A stretch of 64,000 nucleotides of DNA from Opitutales bacterium (GCA_017531845.1 JAFXKI010000011.1:62001-126000), one strand, 5' to 3'; positions 53,304 through 64,000 are shown, numbered from the stretch's first letter. Translations and numbers: made by a program. Notes: generated from the sequence alone by a model not told the origin.

Positions 53304-53867
53304 ATGTCATTGATTAACAAAGAAATCGCGGACTTCACCGTCCAATCCTACCAGAACAACAAGTTCGTTCCCGTCTCCAAGAAAGACGTTCTCGGCAAAT
53401 GGAGCGTGTTTTTCTTCTATCCGGCAGACTTCACTTTCGTCTGCCCGACCGAGCTCGAAGACCTCGCGAACAAGTACGAAGAATTTAAGAAAATCGGCTG
53501 CGAAATTTACTCCGTCTCCTGCGACACGCACTTCGTCCACAAAGCGTGGCACGATGCTTCCAAAATCATCAAAAAAATCCAGTATCCGATGCTCGCGGAT
53601 CCGACCGCCGCGCTCGCCCGCGATTTTGACGTGATGATTGAAAGTGCCGGGCTCGCCGAACGCGGAACCTTCATCGTCAACCCGGAAGGCAAAATCGTTT
53701 CCTACGAAGTCGTTGCCGGCAATATCGGGCGCAATGCGGACGAACTTTTCCGCCGCGTGCAGGCGTTGCAATTCGTTGCCGAACACGGCGATGAAGTTTG
53801 CCCGGCGAAATGGCAACCCGGCGCCAAAACGCTGAAGCCGAGCCTCGACCTCGTCGGCGCTTTGTAA
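53304..53867 (+). CDS. ahpC: 2-Cys peroxiredoxin (AhpC type)
   Basis: 187 residues. FYPADFTFVCPTELEDLANK holds the peroxidatic Cys, DEVCPAKWQPGAKTL the resolving Cys, with a C-terminal YF-type segment replaced by SLDLVGAL. It reduces H2O2, organic hydroperoxides and peroxynitrite. The reductase is encoded 127 nt downstream. Two PerR-like boxes precede it. Confidence 0.95.
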   Translation: MSLINKEIADFTVQSYQNNKFVPVSKKDVLGKWSVFFFYPADFTFVCPTELEDLANKYEEFKKIGCEIYSVSCDTHFVHKAWHDASKIIKKIQYPMLADPTAALARDFDVMIESAGLAERGTFIVNPEGKIVSYEVVAGNIGRNADELFRRVQALQFVAEHGDEVCPAKWQPGAKTLKPSLDLVGAL

Positions 53868-53916
53868 TTAAATACCCGAACAAGAAGCGCCGAATTTCCG
53901 ATGCGCTTCTTTGTAA

Positions 53917-53966
53917 AACGCAAAGAACGCAAAGGACCGACAAAGTTCTTTGCGTTCTTCGCGTTA
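53917..53966. repeat. inverted repeat AACGCAAAGAACGCAAAG
   Basis: AACGCAAAGAACGCAAAG pairs with CTTTGCGTTCTTCGCGTT nearby. Same family as repeats at 39427-39445 and 35742-35780. Confidence 0.6.
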
Positions 53967-53994
53967 AAAAAAATAACACTTTCCTTTTCTAAAT

Positions 53995-55668
53995 ATGAAT
54001 TTTTCCGACTCCATCTACGATGCCGTCATTATCGGCGCCGGTCCCGCCGGGCTCTCTGCCGCAATTTACCTTTCCCGCGCGCGTTTTAGCGTGCTCGTGC
54101 TTGAGCGCGAAAACATCGGCGGGCAAATCACCATCACCGACGAAGTCGTCAATTACCCCGGCGTTTTGCACGCCTCCGGCAAAGCGCTCACGGAAACAAT
54201 GCGGCAACAGGCGGAAAATTTCGGAGCAGAGTTTTTGACGGCCGAAGCGCGGGAACTCGATTTCACGGGAACGGTCAAAACCATCAGGACAACGCGCGGA
54301 GACATTCGTGCGCTCGGTGTTGTCGTCGCAGCGGGAGCGCGTCCGCGCGCGGTCGGATTCAAAGGGGAAGCAGAATTCCGCGGGCGCGGTGTCGCCTACT
54401 GCGCAACCTGCGACGGAGAATTTTTTACGGGGAAGGAACTGCTCGTCATCGGCGGCGGATTTTCCGCCTGCGAAGAAGCGATTTTCCTCACGCGCTACGC
54501 AAAAAAAATTACGATGCTCGTGCGTCGCGACGAATTCTCCTGCGCGCAAAGCGTTGCGGAAGAAGTTTTGGCAAATCCGAAAATTTCGGTGCGTTTCAAC
54601 ACGGAACTCTTGGAAATTCGCGGGAACGCGGCACCCGAAAGTGCCATTTTGAAAAATAATAAAACCGGGCAAACGGAGGAATTTCGGACGGAAGACGGCG
54701 ACTCTTTCGGCGTTTTCGTCTTCGTCGGCTACGCTCCCGCAAGCGATTTAATCAAAGATAAAATCGGAATCGACAAAGACGGATTCGCGATTTGTGACGA
54801 AGAAGGAAAAACCGGAATCGACGGCGTTTACGTCGCGGGCGATTTGCGCCGCAAACGCTTGCGCCAAGTCGTTACCGCCGTTGCCGACGGCGCAACTTCC
54901 GCCACCGCGCTCGAAAAATATCTGTCCGACGCACGCAAACTTGCCGGCATCACGACGCGTGCTTCCCGCGAAATCCGCAAGCCCGCCGCCCACGAAAAAC
55001 CGCCTGCAACGGAAAGCGTTCCCGCAAAAGATTCCGAAAACGCCGACAACGACGGAAAATTCTTCGACGAAGCCGCACGCGCCCAACTTCAAGGCGTTTT
55101 CGCCCGCTTCGAAAATAAAATCGTCCTCGCGGCGGAACTCGACGACAGCAACGCCGTTTCCGACGAACTGAAAAACTTCCTCGAAGAAATCGCCGAACTT
55201 TCCGACAAAATCGAATTACGCTTCGGCACTCCCGCGGGAACGGACGCAACTGCGCTTCGCCCTTGCGTCACGATTTGCGATGCCGACGGAAAATCTCGCG
55301 GAGCAAGTTTCCACGGCGTTCCCGGCGGACACGAAATCAACTCCTTCATCATCGCTCTTTATAACGCCGCCGGTCCGGGACAAGCGCTCGACGACGCCAC
55401 GCGGGAACGCATCCGCGCGCTCGCACCGCGCAAAATCGAAGTGCTCGTTTCGCTTTCCTGCACGCAGTGCCCGGAAGTCGTCGTCGCGACGCAACGCATT
55501 GCACTGGAAAATCCGGAAATTTCAACCGATGTCCTCGACATCGCACACTTCCCCGCGATCCGCGAACGCTACAACGTCATGAGCGTTCCCGCGATCGCCG
55601 TAAACGGCAAAATTATCGCCTTCGGCAAAAAATCGCTCCCGCAGATCCTCGAAATTCTGGAGCATTAA
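53995..55668 (+). CDS. thioredoxin-reductase-like flavoprotein with C-terminal AhpF-type thioredoxin-fold domains
   Basis: 557 residues. The N-terminal ~310 residues are a TrxR-like FAD/NAD(P)H module: DAVIIGAGPAGLSAAIYLSR, GVAYCATCDGEFFTGKELLV (redox CxxC), and GIDGVYVAGDLRRK. A charged linker (~320-360) leads to two thioredoxin folds; the second has VSLSCTQCPEVVVATQRIAL (CxxC) and MSVPAIAVNGKIIAF. AhpF normally has these folds at the N-terminus, so the order is swapped. It probably reduces the peroxiredoxin encoded just upstream. Confidence 0.88.
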   Translation: MNFSDSIYDAVIIGAGPAGLSAAIYLSRARFSVLVLERENIGGQITITDEVVNYPGVLHASGKALTETMRQQAENFGAEFLTAEARELDFTGTVKTIRTTRGDIRALGVVVAAGARPRAVGFKGEAEFRGRGVAYCATCDGEFFTGKELLVIGGGFSACEEAIFLTRYAKKITMLVRRDEFSCAQSVAEEVLANPKISVRFNTELLEIRGNAAPESAILKNNKTGQTEEFRTEDGDSFGVFVFVGYAPASDLIKDKIGIDKDGFAICDEEGKTGIDGVYVAGDLRRKRLRQVVTAVADGATSATALEKYLSDARKLAGITTRASREIRKPAAHEKPPATESVPAKDSENADNDGKFFDEAARAQLQGVFARFENKIVLAAELDDSNAVSDELKNFLEEIAELSDKIELRFGTPAGTDATALRPCVTICDADGKSRGASFHGVPGGHEINSFIIALYNAAGPGQALDDATRERIRALAPRKIEVLVSLSCTQCPEVVVATQRIALENPEISTDVLDIAHFPAIRERYNVMSVPAIAVNGKIIAFGKKSLPQILEILEH

Positions 55669-55871: not shown

Positions 55872-55900
55872 TTGACGTGAGAATCAGTCTCATTATTAAT
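55872..55900 (+). promoter_or_regulatory. promoter of the haem locus overlapped by a Fur box
   Basis: TTGACG (-35, 55872-55877) and TATTAA/ATTAAT (-10, about 55894-55900) with 16-17 nt between. The space is filled by the palindrome at 55878-55892. Confidence 0.6.
55878..55892. promoter_or_regulatory. Fur-type operator
   Basis: TGAGAAT-C-AGTCTCA, a 7-1-7 palindrome with one mismatch, the classical Fur arrangement. It lies between -35 and -10, 24 nt before the first gene of the iron/haem locus. Confidence 0.7.
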
Positions 55901-55915
55901 AGAAATCTCTTTACG

Positions 55916-56056
55916 ATGAAAACGCTTTCGCAGGATGTTTTGAAAAAAATTGCGGATCAGCTCGCTTCGCTGAAGTTCGGAGAGCTGACCGTAGTGGTTC
56001 ACGACGGGAAGGTCGTTCAAATCGAAGTAAAGGAAAAAATCCGACTTACTCAATAA
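55916..56056 (+). CDS. DUF2292 (YezD-like) small protein
   Basis: 46 residues. ADQLASLKFGELTVVVHDGK then VVQIEVKEKIRL is the DUF2292 pattern: a short helix followed by two strands with a Lys/Arg-rich end. Function is unknown. It is the first gene after the Fur box, 85 nt before the TonB-dependent receptor, and is probably co-transcribed with it. The strong position suggests an iron-related role. Confidence 0.8.
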   Translation: MKTLSQDVLKKIADQLASLKFGELTVVVHDGKVVQIEVKEKIRLTQ

Positions 56057-56141
56057 CGCGACCGAAACACGGAGCGACTCAAAAAACAACTTTCTCGCCC
56101 GCGACCGGACAGACCGGAGTGCGCGACACGACGAGAAAAAC

Positions 56142-58349
56142 ATGAAAATCAAACCCTCTTTTTTAATGTTCGCAGGAGTAGCGTGCCTACCCTGCGTTGC
56201 GCTTTGGGCGCAGGACACGGCGGGAACGCCGTCCGGAGATTCGCCTTCGGATAAAATTTCCGAAGCGGCGGAAAACGTTCCCGCAGAAAAAACGCCCGTC
56301 GGCAAAGCGGTGCGCGTTACCGCCGCCAAGCATGAAATGGAAATGGCGGATGTGCCGATGAGCGTTGCCGTTGTCAGCGGTGACGAAATCACAAAAAGTT
56401 CCGCCTCGACGGTTGCGGATTTGCTCGACGACGTTCCCGGCGTGCAGGTCGAAGCCAACGGAACTCCCGGTTTTAAGCAGGTGAATATTCGCGGCGAAAG
56501 CAATCAGCGCGTGCTGATTCTTGTGGACGGGCAAAGAATTTCAGAAACCAAAGGCATGAACGGCGCGCCGCTTTTAATGTCGGTTCAGGACGTTGAGCGC
56601 GTCGAAGTTATCAAAGGTCCGGCATCGGTGCTTTACGGCTCGGAGGCGATCGGCGGCGTTGTTAATATTATTACGAAGAAATCCGGGAAAGAAGGCGTTC
56701 ACGGGAGCGCCGGCGTGCGCGGCGACACGGGAACGCGCGGGCTTGATCAATACTACGATTTAAATGCGCGCTACGGCGATTTCTCCGCGCGCGTTTCGTT
56801 TTCCGACGAAGACCACGGCGACATCGAATCGCCCGACGGGCGCGTGGACCGCACCTCCTATCGTTTTCAAAACACGAGTGCTTATCTCGCCTACGACATT
56901 TCGGAAAATGCGAGCTTCGGATTAAAATTCGAATCTTTCGCCGGCCGCTCGGAAGTCGCTTCCGGCGATGATTTGCTGTTCATGGAGCTCCCGCGCTGGG
57001 ATCGCGAAAAAATCGGGCTTTTTCTTGAAGTAAAAGATATTTCCGAGACCTTCGTGAAATTCCGCGCAGACGCTTATTTTCAAAAAACGGACAAGCATTT
57101 TGTCCAAGACATTACGCAGACGGTCTCGCCGATGACCATTAACGTGAACGCCGACCGCCGCAACCGGCACGACGCCTACGGTGCGGAAATGCAGGCGGAT
57201 TTTTCAATCGCGGACACGCATTATCTCATCGTCGGCGCGCAAATTGATTACGTAAAATTAGATTCGCACGAAGAAACGACCACACAAAATTGGATAACGC
57301 TCCCGACGGGAACGCGTTACGTCGTCGATATGACGCGCACGAATGATTACGACGCGGACATTTTGACCGCCGCGCTTTTTGCGCAGGACGAATGGAATTT
57401 TGCCGAAGGCTGGAGTCTTGTTCTCGGTGCGCGCGGCACCTATGTAAAAAACGAATTCGATGAAGGCACATCGCACGTCGTTCGCCGTGCGGGAACAAAC
57501 GCGGGAACGACCGTTGAAACGCTCCCGCAGCAAAGTAAGGAAGACGCGGACGCGACATTTTCGCTCTCGCTCGTAAACGCGCAAATCGAGAATTGGACGT
57601 TTCGCGGAACCGTCTCGCAAGGCTATCGCTACGCTTCGATTAACGAGCTTTATATCGGCTCCGCGATAGCAAGCACCGAAACACACGCGAACCCGAATCT
57701 CGAGCCGGAAAAAAGCATTAGCTACGAACTCGGAACACGCTACGACAACGGAAACTTCAGCCTCGACGCAACCGTTTTTTACACGGATTCCGACGATTAC
57801 ATCGGCACGGAAACCAGAGCCGTCGCGGGAACGGGCGCAACGTCCGTTTGGTTTGTAAATTACGATTCCGCTAAAAGCTTCGGCGCGGAACTTTCGGCGT
57901 CTTATCTTTTCGAACTCGGAAAAGATGCTGCGATAAAACCTTACGCCGTTGCCACGTTTTTGCGCCGCCGCTTCGACAACGCTTCCGGCTCGACTTACGA
58001 CACCGGGCAACCGGAAATTTTCGGAAAAGCCGGCGTGCTTGCGACTTACACCGAAAGCAATCGCAACTGGTGGGCGGATTTCAATCTGCGCGGGAACGCC
58101 GCCGCCGAAGAGAAAATCTCCGATGTCAGCGCGCCCGGCGGCTCAAAAATTCAACGCAAGCCCGGCTGGACAACGCTTAATTTTGCAATCGGACTTGATG
58201 TTTTTGACAAAAGCGACAGCGCATTTTTTGAAAAGCTCACGCTTGCAATCGGAGTCGACAACATTTTCGACAAGCGCTACGAGCTCCCGCACCTCGATTA
58301 CCTTCAGCCCGGGCGCAGCTTCTGGGCATCGCTCAAATATGAGTTTTAA
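56142..58349 (+). CDS. TonB-dependent outer-membrane receptor, probable haem receptor
   Basis: 735 residues. Signal peptide MKIKPSFLMFAGVACLPCVA, plug domain VPMSVAVVSGDEITKSSAST, VNIRGESNQRVLILVDGQRI and VERVEVIKGPASVLYGSEAI, then a 22-strand barrel with THANPNLEPEKSISYELGTR (the NPNL motif found in haem receptors) and a terminal Phe (ASLKYEF). Imports its ligand with TonB-ExbB energy; an exbB gene starts at 63635. Substrate is inferred from neighbours, not proven. Confidence 0.9.
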   Translation: MKIKPSFLMFAGVACLPCVALWAQDTAGTPSGDSPSDKISEAAENVPAEKTPVGKAVRVTAAKHEMEMADVPMSVAVVSGDEITKSSASTVADLLDDVPGVQVEANGTPGFKQVNIRGESNQRVLILVDGQRISETKGMNGAPLLMSVQDVERVEVIKGPASVLYGSEAIGGVVNIITKKSGKEGVHGSAGVRGDTGTRGLDQYYDLNARYGDFSARVSFSDEDHGDIESPDGRVDRTSYRFQNTSAYLAYDISENASFGLKFESFAGRSEVASGDDLLFMELPRWDREKIGLFLEVKDISETFVKFRADAYFQKTDKHFVQDITQTVSPMTINVNADRRNRHDAYGAEMQADFSIADTHYLIVGAQIDYVKLDSHEETTTQNWITLPTGTRYVVDMTRTNDYDADILTAALFAQDEWNFAEGWSLVLGARGTYVKNEFDEGTSHVVRRAGTNAGTTVETLPQQSKEDADATFSLSLVNAQIENWTFRGTVSQGYRYASINELYIGSAIASTETHANPNLEPEKSISYELGTRYDNGNFSLDATVFYTDSDDYIGTETRAVAGTGATSVWFVNYDSAKSFGAELSASYLFELGKDAAIKPYAVATFLRRRFDNASGSTYDTGQPEIFGKAGVLATYTESNRNWWADFNLRGNAAAEEKISDVSAPGGSKIQRKPGWTTLNFAIGLDVFDKSDSAFFEKLTLAIGVDNIFDKRYELPHLDYLQPGRSFWASLKYEF

Positions 58350-58381
58350 CCCAATTCCCAGTTACCAGTTACCCAAAAAAC

Positions 58382-58879
58382 ATGAAAACCCTCATCGTTT
58401 ATTCTTCAAAAACGGGCAACACGCGCAAAGTCGCGGAAGCCATTCACGCCGTCCTTCCCGCGGGAACGGACATTTTTCCCGTGAGCGATGCTCCGGAACC
58501 CGACGCCTACGATTTCGTCGTCGTCGGCTACTGGGTGGATCGCGGCACGGCGAATACGGAAATGGCAGCATACATGCCGAAAATCTGCGGAAAAAAAGTC
58601 GGCATATTCTTCACGCTCGGCGCGTATCCGCATTCGCAACATGCGACGGATTCGTTCGAGGCGGGAACGAAATTGCTCGGCGAAGGCTGTGAAGTTGTCG
58701 CCAAATTCTGGTGTCAGGGCGCGATTGATCCGAAGTTGACTTCGTGGATGTCAAAACTTCCCGCCGAGCATCCGCATTCTCCGAATCCGGAACGCTTACG
58801 CCGCTGGGAAGAAGCCGCGAAACATCCCGATGCCGCCGATCTTGAAGCCGCACAGTCCGCTTTCAGAAATCTTTTTTAA
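58382..58879 (+). CDS. flavodoxin-family protein (BilS-like)
   Basis: 165 residues. TLIVYSSKTGNTRKVAEAIH is the FMN phosphate loop, YDFVVVGYWVDRGTAN the second loop and GIFFTLGAYPHSQHAT the third. The C-terminal tail (AEHPHSPNPERLRRWEEAAK) is unlike electron-transfer flavodoxins and resembles the family found beside tetrapyrrole reductases. It begins 32 nt after the receptor gene. Likely role: FMN-dependent reductant or reductase for the radical SAM step (inference). Confidence 0.85.
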   Translation: MKTLIVYSSKTGNTRKVAEAIHAVLPAGTDIFPVSDAPEPDAYDFVVVGYWVDRGTANTEMAAYMPKICGKKVGIFFTLGAYPHSQHATDSFEAGTKLLGEGCEVVAKFWCQGAIDPKLTSWMSKLPAEHPHSPNPERLRRWEEAAKHPDAADLEAAQSAFRNLF

Positions 58880-58891
58880 AATAAGACAGAT

Positions 58892-59045
58892 AGATGACGG
58901 CTTAGAGCTTAGAGGTATTACCTGCGCTTCGCGCAACGAGAAGTTAAAAATTAGAAATGAGTCATCTTCCTAATTTCTAATTCCTCATTCCTAATTTATT
59001 AAAAGCACTTACCTCTAAGCCCTCAGCTCTCACCTCTCAGCCATC
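58892..59045. repeat. nested long inverted repeat
   Basis: Outer arms GATGACGGCTTAGAGCTTAG and the Cys-like complementary tract TACCTCTAAGCC...CTCAGCCATC at 59010-59045, inner arms TTAAAAATTAGAAATGA and TAATTTCTAATTCCTCATTC. Fills the gap between flavodoxin and radical SAM genes. Confidence 0.65.
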
Positions 59046-59093
59046 GAAGTATTCTCCGAAAACTCACGGATTATTATCCGCTAAAGATACCTT

Positions 59094-60533
59094 ATGTTTT
59101 CAGATTTTCTTTTTCCCGAAGCTCCGGCAGACGTGATTGCGCGGCTTGAAGAAAAAAAGCATTTCAATCACACGGAGAATTTCCGCCGCCACGGGAACGT
59201 GCCGCCGCCGGCCCCGCAGGAAGCGTGGGCGCAAGCTGCCTCATTACCCAAACGCACTGCACGCCGCGCCATTTATCTGCACGTGCCGTTTTGCCTGCAT
59301 CGCTGCTCTTTTTGCAGTTTTTATTCCAACGCAACGCGTACGTCCGATCTCGACGGCTACACGGCAAGCGTACTTGCGGAAATGAAAAACGCGCTCGCGG
59401 GAACGCCGCAGCTTGCCGAAGAAACGATCGACGTCGTTTATTTCGGCGGAGGAACGCCGACCGATCTTTCCGCCAAAAACCTCGCCGCGCTCGTTTCGTT
59501 TATTCATAAAAATTTCCGCATCGCGCCGGATTACGAGTTTACCGTCGAAGGGCGCACGAGCGATTTCGGCGAAGAAAAAATCCGCGCCTGCGTCGACAAC
59601 GGAGTGAACCGCTTTTCCTTCGGCGTGCAAACTTTCGACACGGAGCTGCGCCGCAAGCTCGGCAGAATCATGTCGAAGGAAGAACTCGTCGATCGCCTTT
59701 CGCTCGTCAAAAAAATCGGCGGAGAAAAAATTGCGCTCATGCTCGATTTTATTTACGGGCTTCCCGGACAAACGCCGGCGCTTTGGGACGAGGATTTGCG
59801 CATGATTACGGAAGTCGTTCCCGTGGACGGCGCCGACCTTTATCAGCTAAAACTGCTCCCGGGAACAAGCCTCGCACGTGCGGGAAAAGATTTGAGCTAT
59901 GACGAACGCTACGCGCTTTTTATGACGGCGCGGGAACGCCTGACGCGCCTCGGCTGGAAGCGCCTTTCGATGACGCACTGGGGACGCACGCCGCTCGAAC
60001 GCAATTGGTACAACCACGGCACGAAAACCGGCATGGAGCTCGTGCCGTTCGGCTCGCGCGCGGGCGGCTTCCTCGGCGGCTACAGTTTTATGCAGATTCC
60101 GGATTTGAAAAAATATACGGAAACCGTCGCCGCAGGGAAAAAAGGTCTGATGGTCGCCGTTCCCGACAATCCGGGAATCCGTTTCAAAAACGTTGTTACG
60201 CATCAGCTCGAACTCGGATTTCTCGACCCCGAAAAAATTTCGGCGGAACTGCTTTCCGGAGAAGCGAAAGCTGTATGGAAAAACTGGATACGCGCCGGTA
60301 TTCTCGTTCCCGACGGAGAAAACCGCTACAAGCTTTCTCCGCTCGGCGAATACTGGCACGTGACGCTGATTTCGCTCGTCATGGGAATGATCGCAAAAAT
60401 CCTTTTCGGAAAATGCGGGAACGCGACCGGAAGCGCAACGCCGCCGCACGGGAACGCAAATCCGCTCGGGCGCGGCTCGCACGGCGGGCATAATCGCCCG
60501 CGAATGCTTCCGGCGGAGGCGGCAAACGCATGA
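59094..60533 (+). CDS. hutW: HutW/ChuW-like radical SAM haem-degradation enzyme
   Basis: 479 residues. AIYLHVPFCLHRCSFCSFYS holds the CxxxCxxC cluster (Cys 67, 71, 74), with DVVYFGGGTPTDLSAKNLAA and FTVEGRTSDFGEEKIRACVD as in HemN/HutW. ChuW/HutW opens haem anaerobically and frees iron. The C-terminus ends in a Gly/His/Asn-rich tail (HGNANPLGRGSHGGHNRPR) that may be metal-binding or an annotation artefact. The stop overlaps the next start (ATGA). Confidence 0.85.
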   Translation: MFSDFLFPEAPADVIARLEEKKHFNHTENFRRHGNVPPPAPQEAWAQAASLPKRTARRAIYLHVPFCLHRCSFCSFYSNATRTSDLDGYTASVLAEMKNALAGTPQLAEETIDVVYFGGGTPTDLSAKNLAALVSFIHKNFRIAPDYEFTVEGRTSDFGEEKIRACVDNGVNRFSFGVQTFDTELRRKLGRIMSKEELVDRLSLVKKIGGEKIALMLDFIYGLPGQTPALWDEDLRMITEVVPVDGADLYQLKLLPGTSLARAGKDLSYDERYALFMTARERLTRLGWKRLSMTHWGRTPLERNWYNHGTKTGMELVPFGSRAGGFLGGYSFMQIPDLKKYTETVAAGKKGLMVAVPDNPGIRFKNVVTHQLELGFLDPEKISAELLSGEAKAVWKNWIRAGILVPDGENRYKLSPLGEYWHVTLISLVMGMIAKILFGKCGNATGSATPPHGNANPLGRGSHGGHNRPRMLPAEAANA

Positions 60534-61108
60534 GCGACGTTCCCGCCAAGGCGATTCCGGCGTTGAAAAAATTTTATTGGACGACGGAGCATCTCGTACT
60601 CGTCGGGATTTTTTCCGCGCTCATTCGCATTTCCGGGCTTGCCGTCAGCCTCGTCGGCGGCGGACCGAATCCGATTGCGCTTTTTATCCGCAACGGGTTG
60701 ACGACGGCGCTACTCGTCGTGCTGGTTTGCCGCGTGCGCAAATTCGGCGTGCTTTGCCTGTATTGCCTGATCAACGTCGTGATTTCGTTTTTTATGTCGG
60801 GTTCGCTGATGATTGTTCTCGCTCCCGCGAATTTGCTCGCGGCGATTTTAAGTGATTGGATCATTGCGGCAACGGGCGGCTACAAAAACACCTTGAGCGT
60901 CTTGGTCGGCGTGGCGATGTATGATTTGTTTTCCCGCGGGATCGCGCTCGGCATGAGCTTTGTTTTCCTGCGGGAAAATGCGCAACTTTTTGCGGCGGGA
61001 GCGTTCATGATTGCGCTCGGCTATTGCGGGAGCGTGCTCGTCGGGCTTCCCGCCGGCTACAAATTCGTGAAGGAGCTTCGTCATGCCGGGCTTATCCGGG
61101 AACGATGA
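60530..61108 (+). CDS. ECF transporter S component (probable substrate-binding membrane subunit)
   Basis: 192 residues, about six membrane helices. TTEHLVLVGIFSALIRISGL, NPIALFIRNGLTTALLVVLV and AAILSDWIIAATGGYKNTLS are the S-component pattern, including the Ala-rich helix for contact with the T unit. It starts 4 nt inside the radical SAM gene. With the T and A genes following, this is a complete dedicated ECF module; the haem or haem-product specificity is inferred from neighbours. Confidence 0.78.
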   Translation: MSDVPAKAIPALKKFYWTTEHLVLVGIFSALIRISGLAVSLVGGGPNPIALFIRNGLTTALLVVLVCRVRKFGVLCLYCLINVVISFFMSGSLMIVLAPANLLAAILSDWIIAATGGYKNTLSVLVGVAMYDLFSRGIALGMSFVFLRENAQLFAAGAFMIALGYCGSVLVGLPAGYKFVKELRHAGLIRER

Positions 61109-61182
61109 GCAATGAACAACGCATTCTTTAAAGTGGTTTCTTCTCCGGTATTTGCCGAGAGCTTTTCTTTCAAAAAAATCAA

Positions 61183-62022
61183 ATGAAGCCAAAACGTATT
61201 GATTCCGAAAATACAAAAAAGCCTTTTGTTGCGACGCTCGACATGCGCACCAAGCTTGCCGTTTCCTTGCTTGCGTCGTGTTGCTCGGTCGCGCTGAATG
61301 ATTGGCGTCTGCTTGTTGCCGTCAATTTTTTGACCTTTGTTTATGTGCTGAATTTGCGTCGCTTCAAGCCCGTTTTCGCGATGTATGCGGCAACGTTTCT
61401 CATGCTCGGAATGGCATATTGTTTCATTCCCGCTTTTGTTTGGATTTTGCGGGAATGCGCGCCGCTTTTGCCGGAGGAAAGCATGCGGGAAAGCTTTCTG
61501 CGCTTAGCTTCCGTGCTCGGCGACCAAGGTTTCGCGACCGTGCTTCTTCCGTTTCTGCGGATTTCCGTGAGCATGAACGTTTTTCTCGCGCTCGGGCTGA
61601 CGTTTGACAATCAGGAATTTATTTCCGTAATGCGGAAAATGCGCCTGCCGCGCATCATTTTTATTCCGCTGACGGTGTGTTGCCGTTTTGTCCCGAGCTT
61701 TGTCGACGACATTCGCCAACTTTACGAGAGCCTGCGCGTGCGGCGGCGGAAGATGAATTTCTTCTCGCTCGTCGCGTCGCCGCTGAGCTTTTTGCGTTAT
61801 GTTGTCGTTCCCGTATGCGTGCGCACTTTGCGCATTGCGGACAATCTTGTGCTGATGTGCGAAGTGCGGCGCGTCGGCTGTAGCGAACGTTGCATTTGTG
61901 CGGCGGAGCACCGGATGCGTTCCCGCGATTGGTGCGTGCTCGCGTTCGCGACTTCCGCCGCCGTAGCCGTTTTAACCTTAAAATTCATGCTGCCCGTTCC
62001 CGCAACGACCTTTCTTCACTAA
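61183..62022 (+). CDS. ECF transporter T component
   Basis: 279 residues. LDMRTKLAVSLLASCCSVAL start, RLPRIIFIPLTVCCRFVPSF and the coupling helices with YESLRVRRRKM and VRRVGCSERCICAAEHR-like segments. About five membrane helices. Couples ATPase and S unit. It follows the S gene by 74 nt. A first-start ATG at 61183 gives a 15-residue polar N-terminus. Confidence 0.82.
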   Translation: MKPKRIDSENTKKPFVATLDMRTKLAVSLLASCCSVALNDWRLLVAVNFLTFVYVLNLRRFKPVFAMYAATFLMLGMAYCFIPAFVWILRECAPLLPEESMRESFLRLASVLGDQGFATVLLPFLRISVSMNVFLALGLTFDNQEFISVMRKMRLPRIIFIPLTVCCRFVPSFVDDIRQLYESLRVRRRKMNFFSLVASPLSFLRYVVVPVCVRTLRIADNLVLMCEVRRVGCSERCICAAEHRMRSRDWCVLAFATSAAVAVLTLKFMLPVPATTFLH

Positions 62023-62027
62023 AAAGA

Positions 62028-62110
62028 AACCGCGAATGAACGCGAAGTTTTTTAAATGAAACATCTTTGAAAATACATACTTCAAAAACAATCCGTGTTC
62101 ATTCGCGGTT
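62028..62110. repeat. long inverted repeat AACCGCGAATGAAC / GTTCATTCGCGGTT
   Basis: 14-bp arms at 62028-62041 and 62097-62110. Same family as at 35705-35837. It lies between the ECF T and A genes. Confidence 0.7.
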
Positions 62111-62124
62111 CCGACTTTTTTCCC

Positions 62125-63534
62125 ATGCTTTTGATTGAAAACCTTTCTTACCGTTATCCGTTCGCGAAAAAAGACGCGCTGACGGACATTTCCTTTTCGC
62201 TCGTCGCGGGCGAAGTGTTGCTGATTTCCGGTCCGTCCGGTTGCGGAAAATCCACGCTGTTGCGCGTGCTCAACGGGCTGATTCCGTTTCATTTTCACGG
62301 CGAGCTCTGCGGGAACGTCAAAATCGGCGGGAACGCGCCCGCTTCGCTCGAAGAAGTTTCCGGCATCGTCGGTTCCGTTTTTCAAAATCCGGATAGCCAG
62401 TTTCTGTCGATGACCGTCGAAAGCGAAGTTGCCGGAAGCCTCGAATGGCGGCTTGATTCCCGCGAAGAAATTTTGCGCCGCACGGACGCAGCGATTGAGC
62501 GCCTCGGGCTCAAGCATTTGCGTTCCCGCAGCCTTTTCGGGCTTTCGTCCGGCGAAAAGCAAAAAACCGTCATCGCTACGGCTATCGCGATGCGCCCGCG
62601 CGTGCTTGTTTTTGATGAGCCGACGGCGAATCTTTCGCCCGAAGCGACGGAAGAGCTCGCCGCGCTCTGCCGCGAACTTAAGCGCGAAGGATTCACCATC
62701 GTCATTGTCGATCACCGCATTTACTGGCTTCGTGGCGTGCCGGACAAAATTCTGATTTTGAACGAAGGAAAAATCGTGCGCCGTTTCGAGGCGTCCGGCG
62801 GAAACGCACTCGACGAGCTTGAAAACAACGGCGATGTGCCCTTGGGTTTGCGCGATGTGCGCGTTTCCGCCAATCCTCCGCTCAAAGAAATTCCGGAAAG
62901 CGTTCCCGCCGCGTTGGTTTGCAAAAATCTTTTTTTCAAATACCCGAACACGGAAAAAGCGATTTTTGACGGCACGCGGGATTTTCGGATTCCGCACGGC
63001 GCGATTACCGCCGTTGTCGGAAAAAACGGTGCAGGGAAAACGACTTTTGCAAAAATCATTACGGGGCTTCTGAAGCTTCCGCGCAAAAACGGCGGCACGA
63101 TTCTCCGAGACGGCGTTCCCGCGAAAGCCGCGAGCCTGCTCAACGACGGCGGCTTCGTTATGCAAAACACCGACATTCAGCTTTACATGCGCAACGTGCT
63201 TGAGGAGCTCGTTTCCGCTTCGCCGCTTCCGGAAAAGGAAGCCGAGCGCGAGGCTCTTGATTTGCTCCGCGAAATCGGGCTCGGCGACAAACGGGAACGC
63301 CACCCGCAATCGCTTTCCGGCGGAGAAAAACAACGCCTCGTCATCGCCTCTGTTCTGATGAAAAAACCGTCGCTGCTCGTGCTCGACGAACCGACCAGCG
63401 GACTCGACGGACGCAATATGCGCATCATCGCGCGCATGCTTCACACCTACGCCGAACGCGGGAACACGGTGCTGCTCATCACGCACGACCTCGAATTTTT
63501 GTCGTTACTTGCTACTTACAAAATTGAAATTTAA
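62125..63534 (+). CDS. ECF transporter ATPase, two fused nucleotide-binding domains
   Basis: 469 residues from the ATG at 62125 (an in-frame ATG at 62095 lies inside the repeat). First domain: LISGPSGCGKSTLLRVL (Walker A), FQNPDSQFLS (Q-loop), LSSGEKQKTVIATAIA (signature), VLVFDEPTANLSPEA (Walker B). Second domain: AVVGKNGAGKTTFAKIITG, QNTDIQLYMRN, LSGGEKQRLVIASVLM and LLVLDEPTSGLDGRNM. The fused EcfA-EcfA' form energises the ECF transporter. Confidence 0.94.
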   Translation: MLLIENLSYRYPFAKKDALTDISFSLVAGEVLLISGPSGCGKSTLLRVLNGLIPFHFHGELCGNVKIGGNAPASLEEVSGIVGSVFQNPDSQFLSMTVESEVAGSLEWRLDSREEILRRTDAAIERLGLKHLRSRSLFGLSSGEKQKTVIATAIAMRPRVLVFDEPTANLSPEATEELAALCRELKREGFTIVIVDHRIYWLRGVPDKILILNEGKIVRRFEASGGNALDELENNGDVPLGLRDVRVSANPPLKEIPESVPAALVCKNLFFKYPNTEKAIFDGTRDFRIPHGAITAVVGKNGAGKTTFAKIITGLLKLPRKNGGTILRDGVPAKAASLLNDGGFVMQNTDIQLYMRNVLEELVSASPLPEKEAEREALDLLREIGLGDKRERHPQSLSGGEKQRLVIASVLMKKPSLLVLDEPTSGLDGRNMRIIARMLHTYAERGNTVLLITHDLEFLSLLATYKIEI

Positions 63535-63540
63535 ACAGCC

Positions 63541-63605
63541 CCACGGAATGCACGGAAGCTCCGAACAAAAAATCTTTCCGTGAATTCCGTGTATTCCGTG
63601 GTTCC
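63541..63605. repeat. inverted repeat CCACGGAATGCACGGAA / TTCCGTGTATTCCGTGG
   Basis: Arms at 63541-63565 and 63576-63603, between the ECF ATPase and exbB genes. Related short repeats occur in PVC-group genomes. Confidence 0.6.
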
Positions 63606-63634
63606 ATAAACCGATCTTCAATTTACAAAATCAA

Positions 63635-64000
63635 ATGATACAACACTACTGCGCCGAATATTACGAAAAGCTCGGTCCCGTGGGAATCCCGCTTGCCGCT
63701 GCGCTTTTGCTTGCCGTTTTTCTTTCGGTAAAAATTTATCTGCAACTTTGCCTCGTTGATTTTCAGTTTCGGCGATTTTTTAAAAACGTCGAAGACGGGA
63801 ACGCCGATTTGCTTTTTGACGAATCCGTTTTGCCGAACAATCCGCTCGTGTGCGTTGTGCGGGACATTGCAACGAAACACCGCCACCATTCCGACGATTT
63901 GCGCGCCGAATCCGCGTATCTTTTTCATCGATACTTTTACAAAACCAAACGGAGTTTCACAACCTTGCGCCTGATTACGGCGACGGCTCCGCTGCTCGGC
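63635..64000 (+). CDS. exbB: ExbB/TolQ/MotA-family proton-channel protein (partial)
   Basis: First 122 residues. MIQHYCAEYYEKLGPVGIPL, one membrane helix (AALLLAVFLSVKIYLQL, ~20-36), a cytoplasmic helical region, and the start of TLRLITATAPLLG, the ExbB core segment that would continue into the second helix. Runs off the right edge; exbD and tonB may follow. Consistent with energising the receptor encoded at 56142. Confidence 0.85.
   Translation, partial: MIQHYCAEYYEKLGPVGIPLAAALLLAVFLSVKIYLQLCLVDFQFRRFFKNVEDGNADLLFDESVLPNNPLVCVVRDIATKHRHHSDDLRAESAYLFHRYFYKTKRSFTTLRLITATAPLLG

What the first reader, a model, noticed from the sequence alone, without database searches (positions are those of the whole stretch)
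55872..64000. Fur-controlled anaerobic haem acquisition locus built on an ECF transporter
Seen: a Fur-like 7-1-7 box between -35 and -10, then DUF2292, a TonB receptor with NPNL motif, a BilS-like flavodoxin, a HutW/ChuW-like radical SAM enzyme overlapping an ECF S gene, ECF T and a fused ECF AA' and ExbB. Known: Gram-negatives normally take haem from the periplasm by HmuTUV-type ABC importers; ECF haem import has been described in Staphylococcus lugdunensis. Inference: here an ECF system imports haem (or a product) and HutW opens it without oxygen, with the flavodoxin as reductant.
Basis: partly seen in the sequence, partly recalled or inferred. Interest (0 to 1): 0.8.

Follow-up and report, generated by a model that had tools for sequence, protein, structure and literature searches.

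The report
Anaerobic haem-iron operon with ECF importer
A gut Verrucomicrobiota bacterium carries a ten-gene operon that very probably takes up haem through its two membranes and breaks it open without oxygen to get iron, using a vitamin-type (ECF) importer where Gram-negative bacteria normally use a different pump.

Summary
The operon is DUF2292 – TonB-dependent receptor – HmuF-type flavodoxin – HutW – EcfS – EcfT – fused EcfAA' – ExbB – ExbD – TonB. Four genomes of one Opitutales genus carry it in the same order; a fifth carries its start. The stronger result lies outside the window: HutW with the same MptD-type ECF importer recurs in three other families of the phylum. All 14 genomes in which I confirmed this S component have HutW beside it or within 2 kb. 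The four complete holders have no FecCD-type (HmuU) permease and no other ECF T subunit, whereas HutW loci of a sister genus carry HmuTUV parts and HemS. So the ECF unit fills the haem-importer position. Iron control is likely: a Fur-like box here, DtxR-like sites elsewhere. Haem as the S-component substrate is inferred from gene linkage, not shown.

The parts
55872..55900 (+). Promoter with Fur-like operator: -35 TTGACG 55872-55877, 7-1-7 box TGAGAATCAGTCTCA 55878-55892, -10 TATTAA(T) 55894-55900
   Evidence: same arrangement before the operon in five genomes of the genus; Fur-family proteins encoded
55916..56056 (+). DUF2292 small protein (about 46 aa), first gene; role unknown
   Evidence: PF10055 61.5 bits; below the OscA cut-off; kept in five genomes
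56091..56138 (+). Leader stem-loop before the receptor gene; its outer stem ends 3 nt before the ATG and covers the probable ribosome-binding site
   Evidence: most conserved 48 nt of the operon, 46 of 48 columns invariant; folding z about -2 to -2.7; no Rfam match; pairs never vary, so structure not proven by covariation
56142..58349 (+). TonB-dependent outer-membrane receptor, haem-receptor-like by profile, without the ChuA/ShuA His pair
58382..58879 (+). HmuF/FldH-type flavodoxin with haem-ligand His132
   Evidence: PF12641; FldH 8g64 E 9.4e-18, Foldseek TM 0.83; His134 aligns to His132
59094..60533 (+). HutW/ChuW-type anaerobilin synthase (class C radical SAM), CxxxCxxC
   Evidence: TIGR04107 384.9 bits; in HutW clade 100/99
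60530..61108 (+). EcfS, Trep_Strep/MptD-type substrate-binding S component; 4-nt overlap with HutW
   Evidence: PF09605 over cut-off, TIGR02185 below cut-off; alignments A1, A7
61183..62022 (+). EcfT transmembrane coupling subunit, the only one in the genome
   Evidence: PF02361 47.3 bits; unique in genome
62095..63534 (+). Fused EcfA-A' ATPase, two intact nucleotide sites
63635..64000 (+). ExbB (runs past the window to L001:10261); followed outside the window by ExbD (L001:10417-10827) and TonB (L001:10790-11629)

Best explanation
This is a self-contained haem-iron acquisition operon of an anaerobic gut Opitutales. The TonB receptor, energised by ExbBD-TonB encoded in the same operon, brings haem into the periplasm. 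The MptD-type S component captures it and the dedicated EcfT-EcfAA' motor imports it, replacing HmuTUV. In the cytoplasm the HmuF-type flavodoxin binds haem and passes it to HutW. HutW opens the ring with SAM radicals, releasing Fe2+ and anaerobilin, which the flavodoxin then reduces. Transcription is released under iron starvation through a Fur-like operator. Shown here: gene content, order, conservation, exclusivity of the importer, fold and haem ligand of the flavodoxin, clade of HutW. Inferred: haem as substrate of receptor and S component, the hand-over steps, and Fur control.
For: Ten-gene order identical in four genomes, with different upstream flanks in two of them. HutW-EcfS-EcfT-EcfAA'-flavodoxin recurs in other families of the phylum; all 14 confirmed S-component genomes have HutW at the locus. 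The linked HutW of G538 and G470 exceed the curated cut-off (434 and 414 bits against 400). HutW clade 100/99, apart from the genome's own HemN/HemW-like paralogues. No FecCD permease and a single EcfT in the four holders. Sister genus: HutW with FecCD, Peripla_BP_2, HemS and a receptor; plasmid HutW loci of Cereibacter and Providencia carry HmuTUV-type genes. Flavodoxin matches haem-bound FldH in sequence and fold, with the haem-ligating His kept. HmuF function: PMC10404700. ECF haem import precedent: PMC7299338.
Against: No direct evidence of the substrate. EcfS has no conserved periplasmic histidine; its two His lie at predicted cytosolic ends, whereas LhaS spectra suggested His ligation. 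The receptor scores below the haem-receptor cut-offs and lacks equivalents of ChuA/ShuA His86 and His420 (residue roles from general knowledge). The EcfS model is poor (pLDDT 57). Permeases other than the FecCD type (for example a dipeptide-permease route for haem) were not searched for.
Confidence: 0.75

Rival explanations
1. The ECF unit imports another metal-tetrapyrrole or iron chelate (a different iron porphyrin, a cobalt corrinoid or a metallophore), and HutW plus flavodoxin act on it or on haem that enters otherwise.
For: No His ligand in EcfS or receptor. The full-score MptD relative of Enterococcus faecalis sits beside an iron-dependent repressor and two ABC half-transporters rather than haem genes.
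Against: HutW is the constant partner in four families and the flavodoxin keeps the haem-ligand His. The receptor scores better with haem (206.6 bits) than B12 (114.3 bits) profiles.
Confidence: 0.17
2. The S component carries an unrelated vitamin and the ECF genes are only co-transcribed with haem genes.
For: Most characterised ECF S components bind vitamins (general knowledge, also PMC7299338). The S family's substrate is unknown.
Against: Same linkage across families with different surroundings, no known vitamin-S family match, 4-nt overlap of hutW and ecfS, iron-type operators in front, and no other haem permease of the FecCD type in the holders.
Confidence: 0.05
3. The operon imports haem mainly as a cofactor, or detoxifies it, rather than for iron.
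For: HmuF also protects from free haem and anaerobilin (PMC10404700).
Against: The genome encodes ferrochelatase, so haem can probably be made; a degrading enzyme and iron-type operators point to iron.
Confidence: 0.03

Closest known systems
LhaSTA of Staphylococcus lugdunensis (and SiaFGH of Streptococcus pyogenes)
   Same: Three-part S-T-A ECF unit within an iron-regulated haem locus; LhaSTA shown to import haem (PMC7299338). The sia operon annotation lists siaF/G/H as S/T/A (PMC6593403).
   Different: Those are Gram-positive; no TonB receptor, HutW or HmuF is described beside them. LhaS spectra suggest His ligation, for which EcfS has no candidate on the outer side. Homology of the S components could not be tested (no sequences reachable).
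hmuTRUVWF of Fusobacterium nucleatum and relatives
   Same: TonB receptor, anaerobilin synthase (HmuW) and HmuF in one locus (PMC10404700).
   Different: Inner-membrane import there is by HmuTUV; here by ECF.
hutWXZ / chuTWXYUV operons of Vibrio, E. coli and plasmid copies (Providencia, Cereibacter)
   Same: HutW/ChuW anaerobic haem opening with a TonB receptor nearby.
   Different: They use HutX/ChuX and a ChuY-type anaerobilin reductase with FecCD-type importers; here HmuF-type flavodoxin and ECF.
MptD (TIGR02185) ECF clusters of Enterococcus and Parvimonas
   Same: S family, T and fused AA' of about 470-505 aa.
   Different: Lie beside two ABC half-transporters, no HutW, no flavodoxin; substrate unknown. 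Window EcfS is a distant relative (38.6 against 204.7 bits).

Membership tests
Group I (dedicated) ECF transporter | S, T and two ATPase sites encoded together | tested here: met
Group I (dedicated) ECF transporter | Energy module not shared with other S genes (only EcfT in genome) | tested here: met
   one EcfT in each of the four holders, none in four non-holders
Group I (dedicated) ECF transporter | S component has the six-helix S fold | tested here: inconclusive
   six helices; best Foldseek hit is an S component (5edl, E 0.16) but the model is weak
Haem ECF importers (LhaSTA type) | S component binds haem | not testable with these tools
   needs protein biochemistry
Haem ECF importers (LhaSTA type) | S component homologous to LhaS | not tested
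Haem ECF importers (LhaSTA type) | Histidine for haem ligation on the outer side of S | tested here: inconclusive
   only His21 and His185, both predicted cytosolic; His185 alone is conserved; topology is predicted
HutW/ChuW anaerobilin synthase | TIGR04107 best model and CxxxCxxC | tested here: met
   384.9 bits, next model 157; just under cut-off 400; ECF-linked relatives 414 and 434 bits
HutW/ChuW anaerobilin synthase | Groups with HutW apart from HemN/HemW | tested here: met
   support 100/99 and 99/99
HutW/ChuW anaerobilin synthase | Opens haem to anaerobilin | not testable with these tools
   needs anaerobic enzyme assay
HmuF/FldH haem-trafficking flavodoxin | Flavodoxin core with helical cap like FldH | tested here: met
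   8g64 TM 0.83, E 9.9e-13; next TM about 0.5
HmuF/FldH haem-trafficking flavodoxin | Haem-ligating His134 and A147, H150, P151, D155 | tested here: met
   H132, A145, H148, P149, D153; also in the f84 relatives
HmuF/FldH haem-trafficking flavodoxin | Lys92 pairing with a haem propionate (seen in the FldH structure; not a stated family-wide requirement) | tested here: not met
   Asp90 in the window protein
HmuTUV-type haem ABC importer | FecCD permease | tested here: not met
   absent from the four holders
Haem TonB-dependent receptor (ChuA/ShuA type) | Plug and barrel histidine ligands | tested here: not met
   Gly138 and Ile/Met509 at the aligned positions
Fur regulon | Fur box in promoter and Fur in genome | tested here: inconclusive
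   box conserved in five genomes, Fur-family proteins present; binding not shown

The most novel reading that the evidence does not exclude
HutW + MptD-type ECF + HmuF is a recurrent, exchangeable haem-iron cassette of Verrucomicrobiota, in which a haem-specific S component that uses no histidine ligand takes haem straight from a TonB receptor and passes it inside to HmuF and HutW, without a periplasmic binding protein. It would be the first ECF haem route across a double membrane.
Probability: 0.55. Interest if true: 0.75.

Novelty: new variant of a known kind. Interest (0 to 1): 0.62.

Why it matters
Gram-negative haem import is described almost only with FecCD-type ABC importers and a periplasmic binding protein. 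A second solution, tied to oxygen-free haem breakdown, would widen the count of gut bacteria able to use haem iron and gives a testable substrate for a branch of the MptD S-component family, whose substrate I found no report of. The open-access papers searched held no report of an ECF haem importer in a Gram-negative bacterium; subscription literature was not searchable.

Tried and rejected
PF12822 ECF S model gave no match in the genome. The EcfS profile found nothing in solved structures, plasmids, viral contigs or 384 class genomes outside the genus; the genome-contig scan found only genus mates, as it works from short peptide patterns. The TIGR02185 family search over the phylum then found the distant relatives, so the early impression of a genus-only system was wrong. 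VIA-align rows for EcfS are a mixed list of helical bundles including S components PanT, ThiT and RibU, so they were not used. Distant hits of the hairpin model lie inside coding frames and were taken as chance. Most other sites matching the Fur-like pattern lie before genes with no obvious iron link.

Full report
What is there. The window lies in contig C9 (bases 62001-126000) of a 1.69 Mb, 95% complete genome. Close relatives in genome contigs are Verrucomicrobia and Opitutales metagenome assemblies, two of them from goat and water-deer rectum. From 55872 a single promoter precedes ten genes on the + strand: DUF2292, a TonB-dependent receptor, a flavodoxin, HutW, EcfS, EcfT, fused EcfAA', ExbB, and past the window ExbD and TonB. 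HutW and EcfS overlap by 4 nt.

Is it a real unit? Four genomes of the genus carry all ten genes in the same order, with proteins 78-99% identical from receptor to EcfAA'. The sequence upstream of the operon differs between them (a thioredoxin-reductase-like gene in G000 and G012, another sequence in G013 and G015). A fifth genome, G011, has a contig ending just after the promoter, DUF2292 and the start of the receptor, so its apparent lack of HutW may be an assembly gap. G012, G013 and G015 are assemblies of their own, which argues against a chimeric contig.

The wider pattern. A family search over 388 genomes of the phylum and fetched surroundings show HutW beside the same S component in three more families: eight genomes of f84, one of f105 and one of f78. 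In f84 the order is HutW-EcfS-EcfT-EcfAA'-flavodoxin in the loci read through (G494, G504, G612; in G470 the AA' frame was not resolved, and in G630 HutW lies about 2 kb from EcfS). The f105 contig has the same order and ends inside the flavodoxin. The f78 contig has HutW, a PNPOx-like gene and EcfS, and ends there. All 14 genomes in which I confirmed this S component have HutW at the locus. The linked HutW of f105 and f84 pass the curated equivalog cut-off (434 and 414 bits against 400), which removes most doubt left by the 384.9 bits of the window protein. In trees the window HutW falls with HutW and not with HemN/HemW-like paralogues of the same genome (100/99), and groups with f84 HutW (98/94); HutW of f105 and f78 branch elsewhere, on long branches, so a single origin of the pairing is not shown.

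Why the ECF unit is probably the haem importer. The four complete holders have no FecCD permease and exactly one EcfT; the four other genomes of the genus have no EcfT. In sister genus g2 the HutW loci carry a TonB receptor, ABC ATPase, Peripla_BP_2, HemS and, in G006, FecCD. Plasmid HutW loci of Cereibacter and Providencia also carry HmuTUV-type genes. So the ECF unit stands where HmuTUV stands elsewhere. This is inference from position and exclusion; other permeases able to pass haem were not searched for.

The flavodoxin. Its closest solved relative is haem-bound FldH of Fusobacterium nucleatum (8g64, E 9.4e-18); the predicted model (pLDDT 82) matches it with TM 0.83 while ordinary flavodoxins reach about 0.5. 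FldH His134, the haem ligand, aligns to His132, conserved in the genus and f84. In PMC10404700 HmuF and FldH bind haem, pass it to HmuW and reduce anaerobilin, and do not work as single-electron flavodoxins.

What does not fit neatly. The receptor is best matched by haem-receptor profiles but under their cut-offs (206.6 against 316.9 bits), and aligned to ChuA it has glycine and isoleucine/methionine at the positions of the two His ligands (the ligand roles are general knowledge). EcfS has only two histidines, both at predicted cytosolic ends, of which His185 is conserved. LhaS by contrast gave spectra suggesting His ligation (PMC7299338). Either haem is bound here through Met or Tyr or through the porphyrin alone, or the substrate is a related compound. 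EcfS is a distant member of the Trep_Strep/MptD family (above the Pfam cut-off, below the NCBIfam one); a full-score member in Enterococcus lies by an iron-dependent repressor with two ABC half-transporters. The EcfS model is too weak for pocket analysis.

Regulation. The box between -35 and -10 is a near-perfect 7-1-7 palindrome, perfect in G012, kept in five genomes, and Fur-family proteins are encoded. Only 11 of 14 positions fit the textbook Fur 15-mer, and such matches arise about once per window by chance, so Fur control rests on position and conservation. In the other families, 4 of 10 HutW promoters carry TTAG-N6-CTAA (G538: TTAGGTTAACCTAA); 0 of 2000 shuffle sets did as well. This resembles DtxR/IdeR operators (general knowledge). 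The pattern was chosen after seeing the sequences, so the number overstates the case, but control by two different types of iron repressor would agree with an iron function.

Leader RNA. The 48 nt before the receptor gene (56091-56138) are the most conserved stretch of the operon (46 of 48 columns) although non-coding. They can fold into three stacked helices whose last strand covers the probable ribosome-binding site. No pair varies, so covariation gives no support, and a conserved protein site is not excluded. It was found only before this operon.

Verdict. New variant of a known kind: the parts are known, but the combination of TonB receptor, ECF importer, HmuF and HutW, and the recurrence of HutW with this ECF unit in four families, was not found in the literature searched. 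The function is well supported by linkage; the substrate is not proven.

Noticed in passing
window 56091-56138: Non-coding stem-loop before the receptor gene, invariant at 46 of 48 columns in four genomes and also kept in G011, no Rfam match; possible translational control element of the haem receptor.
   Followed up: partly
window 58880-59093: The gap between flavodoxin and HutW holds a repeat-rich insert that is 93% identical over 214 nt between G000 and G013 (most of the difference being one 14-nt deletion), although their genes there are only about 80% identical; G012 and G015 have different sequence in that place. Suggests a mobile palindromic element or local recombination.
   Followed up: partly
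L140:473-2005 and L141:1805-3304: HutW proteins of G538 and G670 carry an N-terminal PCP_red domain (PF08369, known from protochlorophyllide reductase subunits), an unexpected fusion for anaerobilin synthase.
   Followed up: partly
L141:3334-3789: A PNPOx-like flavoprotein (151 aa) sits between HutW and EcfS in G670.
   Followed up: no
L069, L086, L087, L088: A 275-292 aa predicted outer-membrane protein in G011, G013, G014 and G015 lies directly behind one or two Fur-like palindromes; possible further member of the regulon.
   Followed up: no
L142:2635-4467, L143:4948-6717, L144:10502-12274, L148:4846-6618: The f84 HutW cassettes lie next to an ABC half-transporter of exporter type (ABC_membrane plus ABC_tran, about 590-610 aa), and no TonB receptor is adjacent.
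   Followed up: no
window 55916-56056: DUF2292, a family that also resembles the sulfur-starvation protein OscA, is the first gene of the operon in five genomes; its role in a haem operon is unexplained.
   Followed up: no
window 53304-55668: A peroxiredoxin-like protein and a 557-aa thioredoxin-reductase-like protein with a C-terminal thioredoxin domain, resembling an AhpCF-type pair, lie directly upstream.
   Followed up: no
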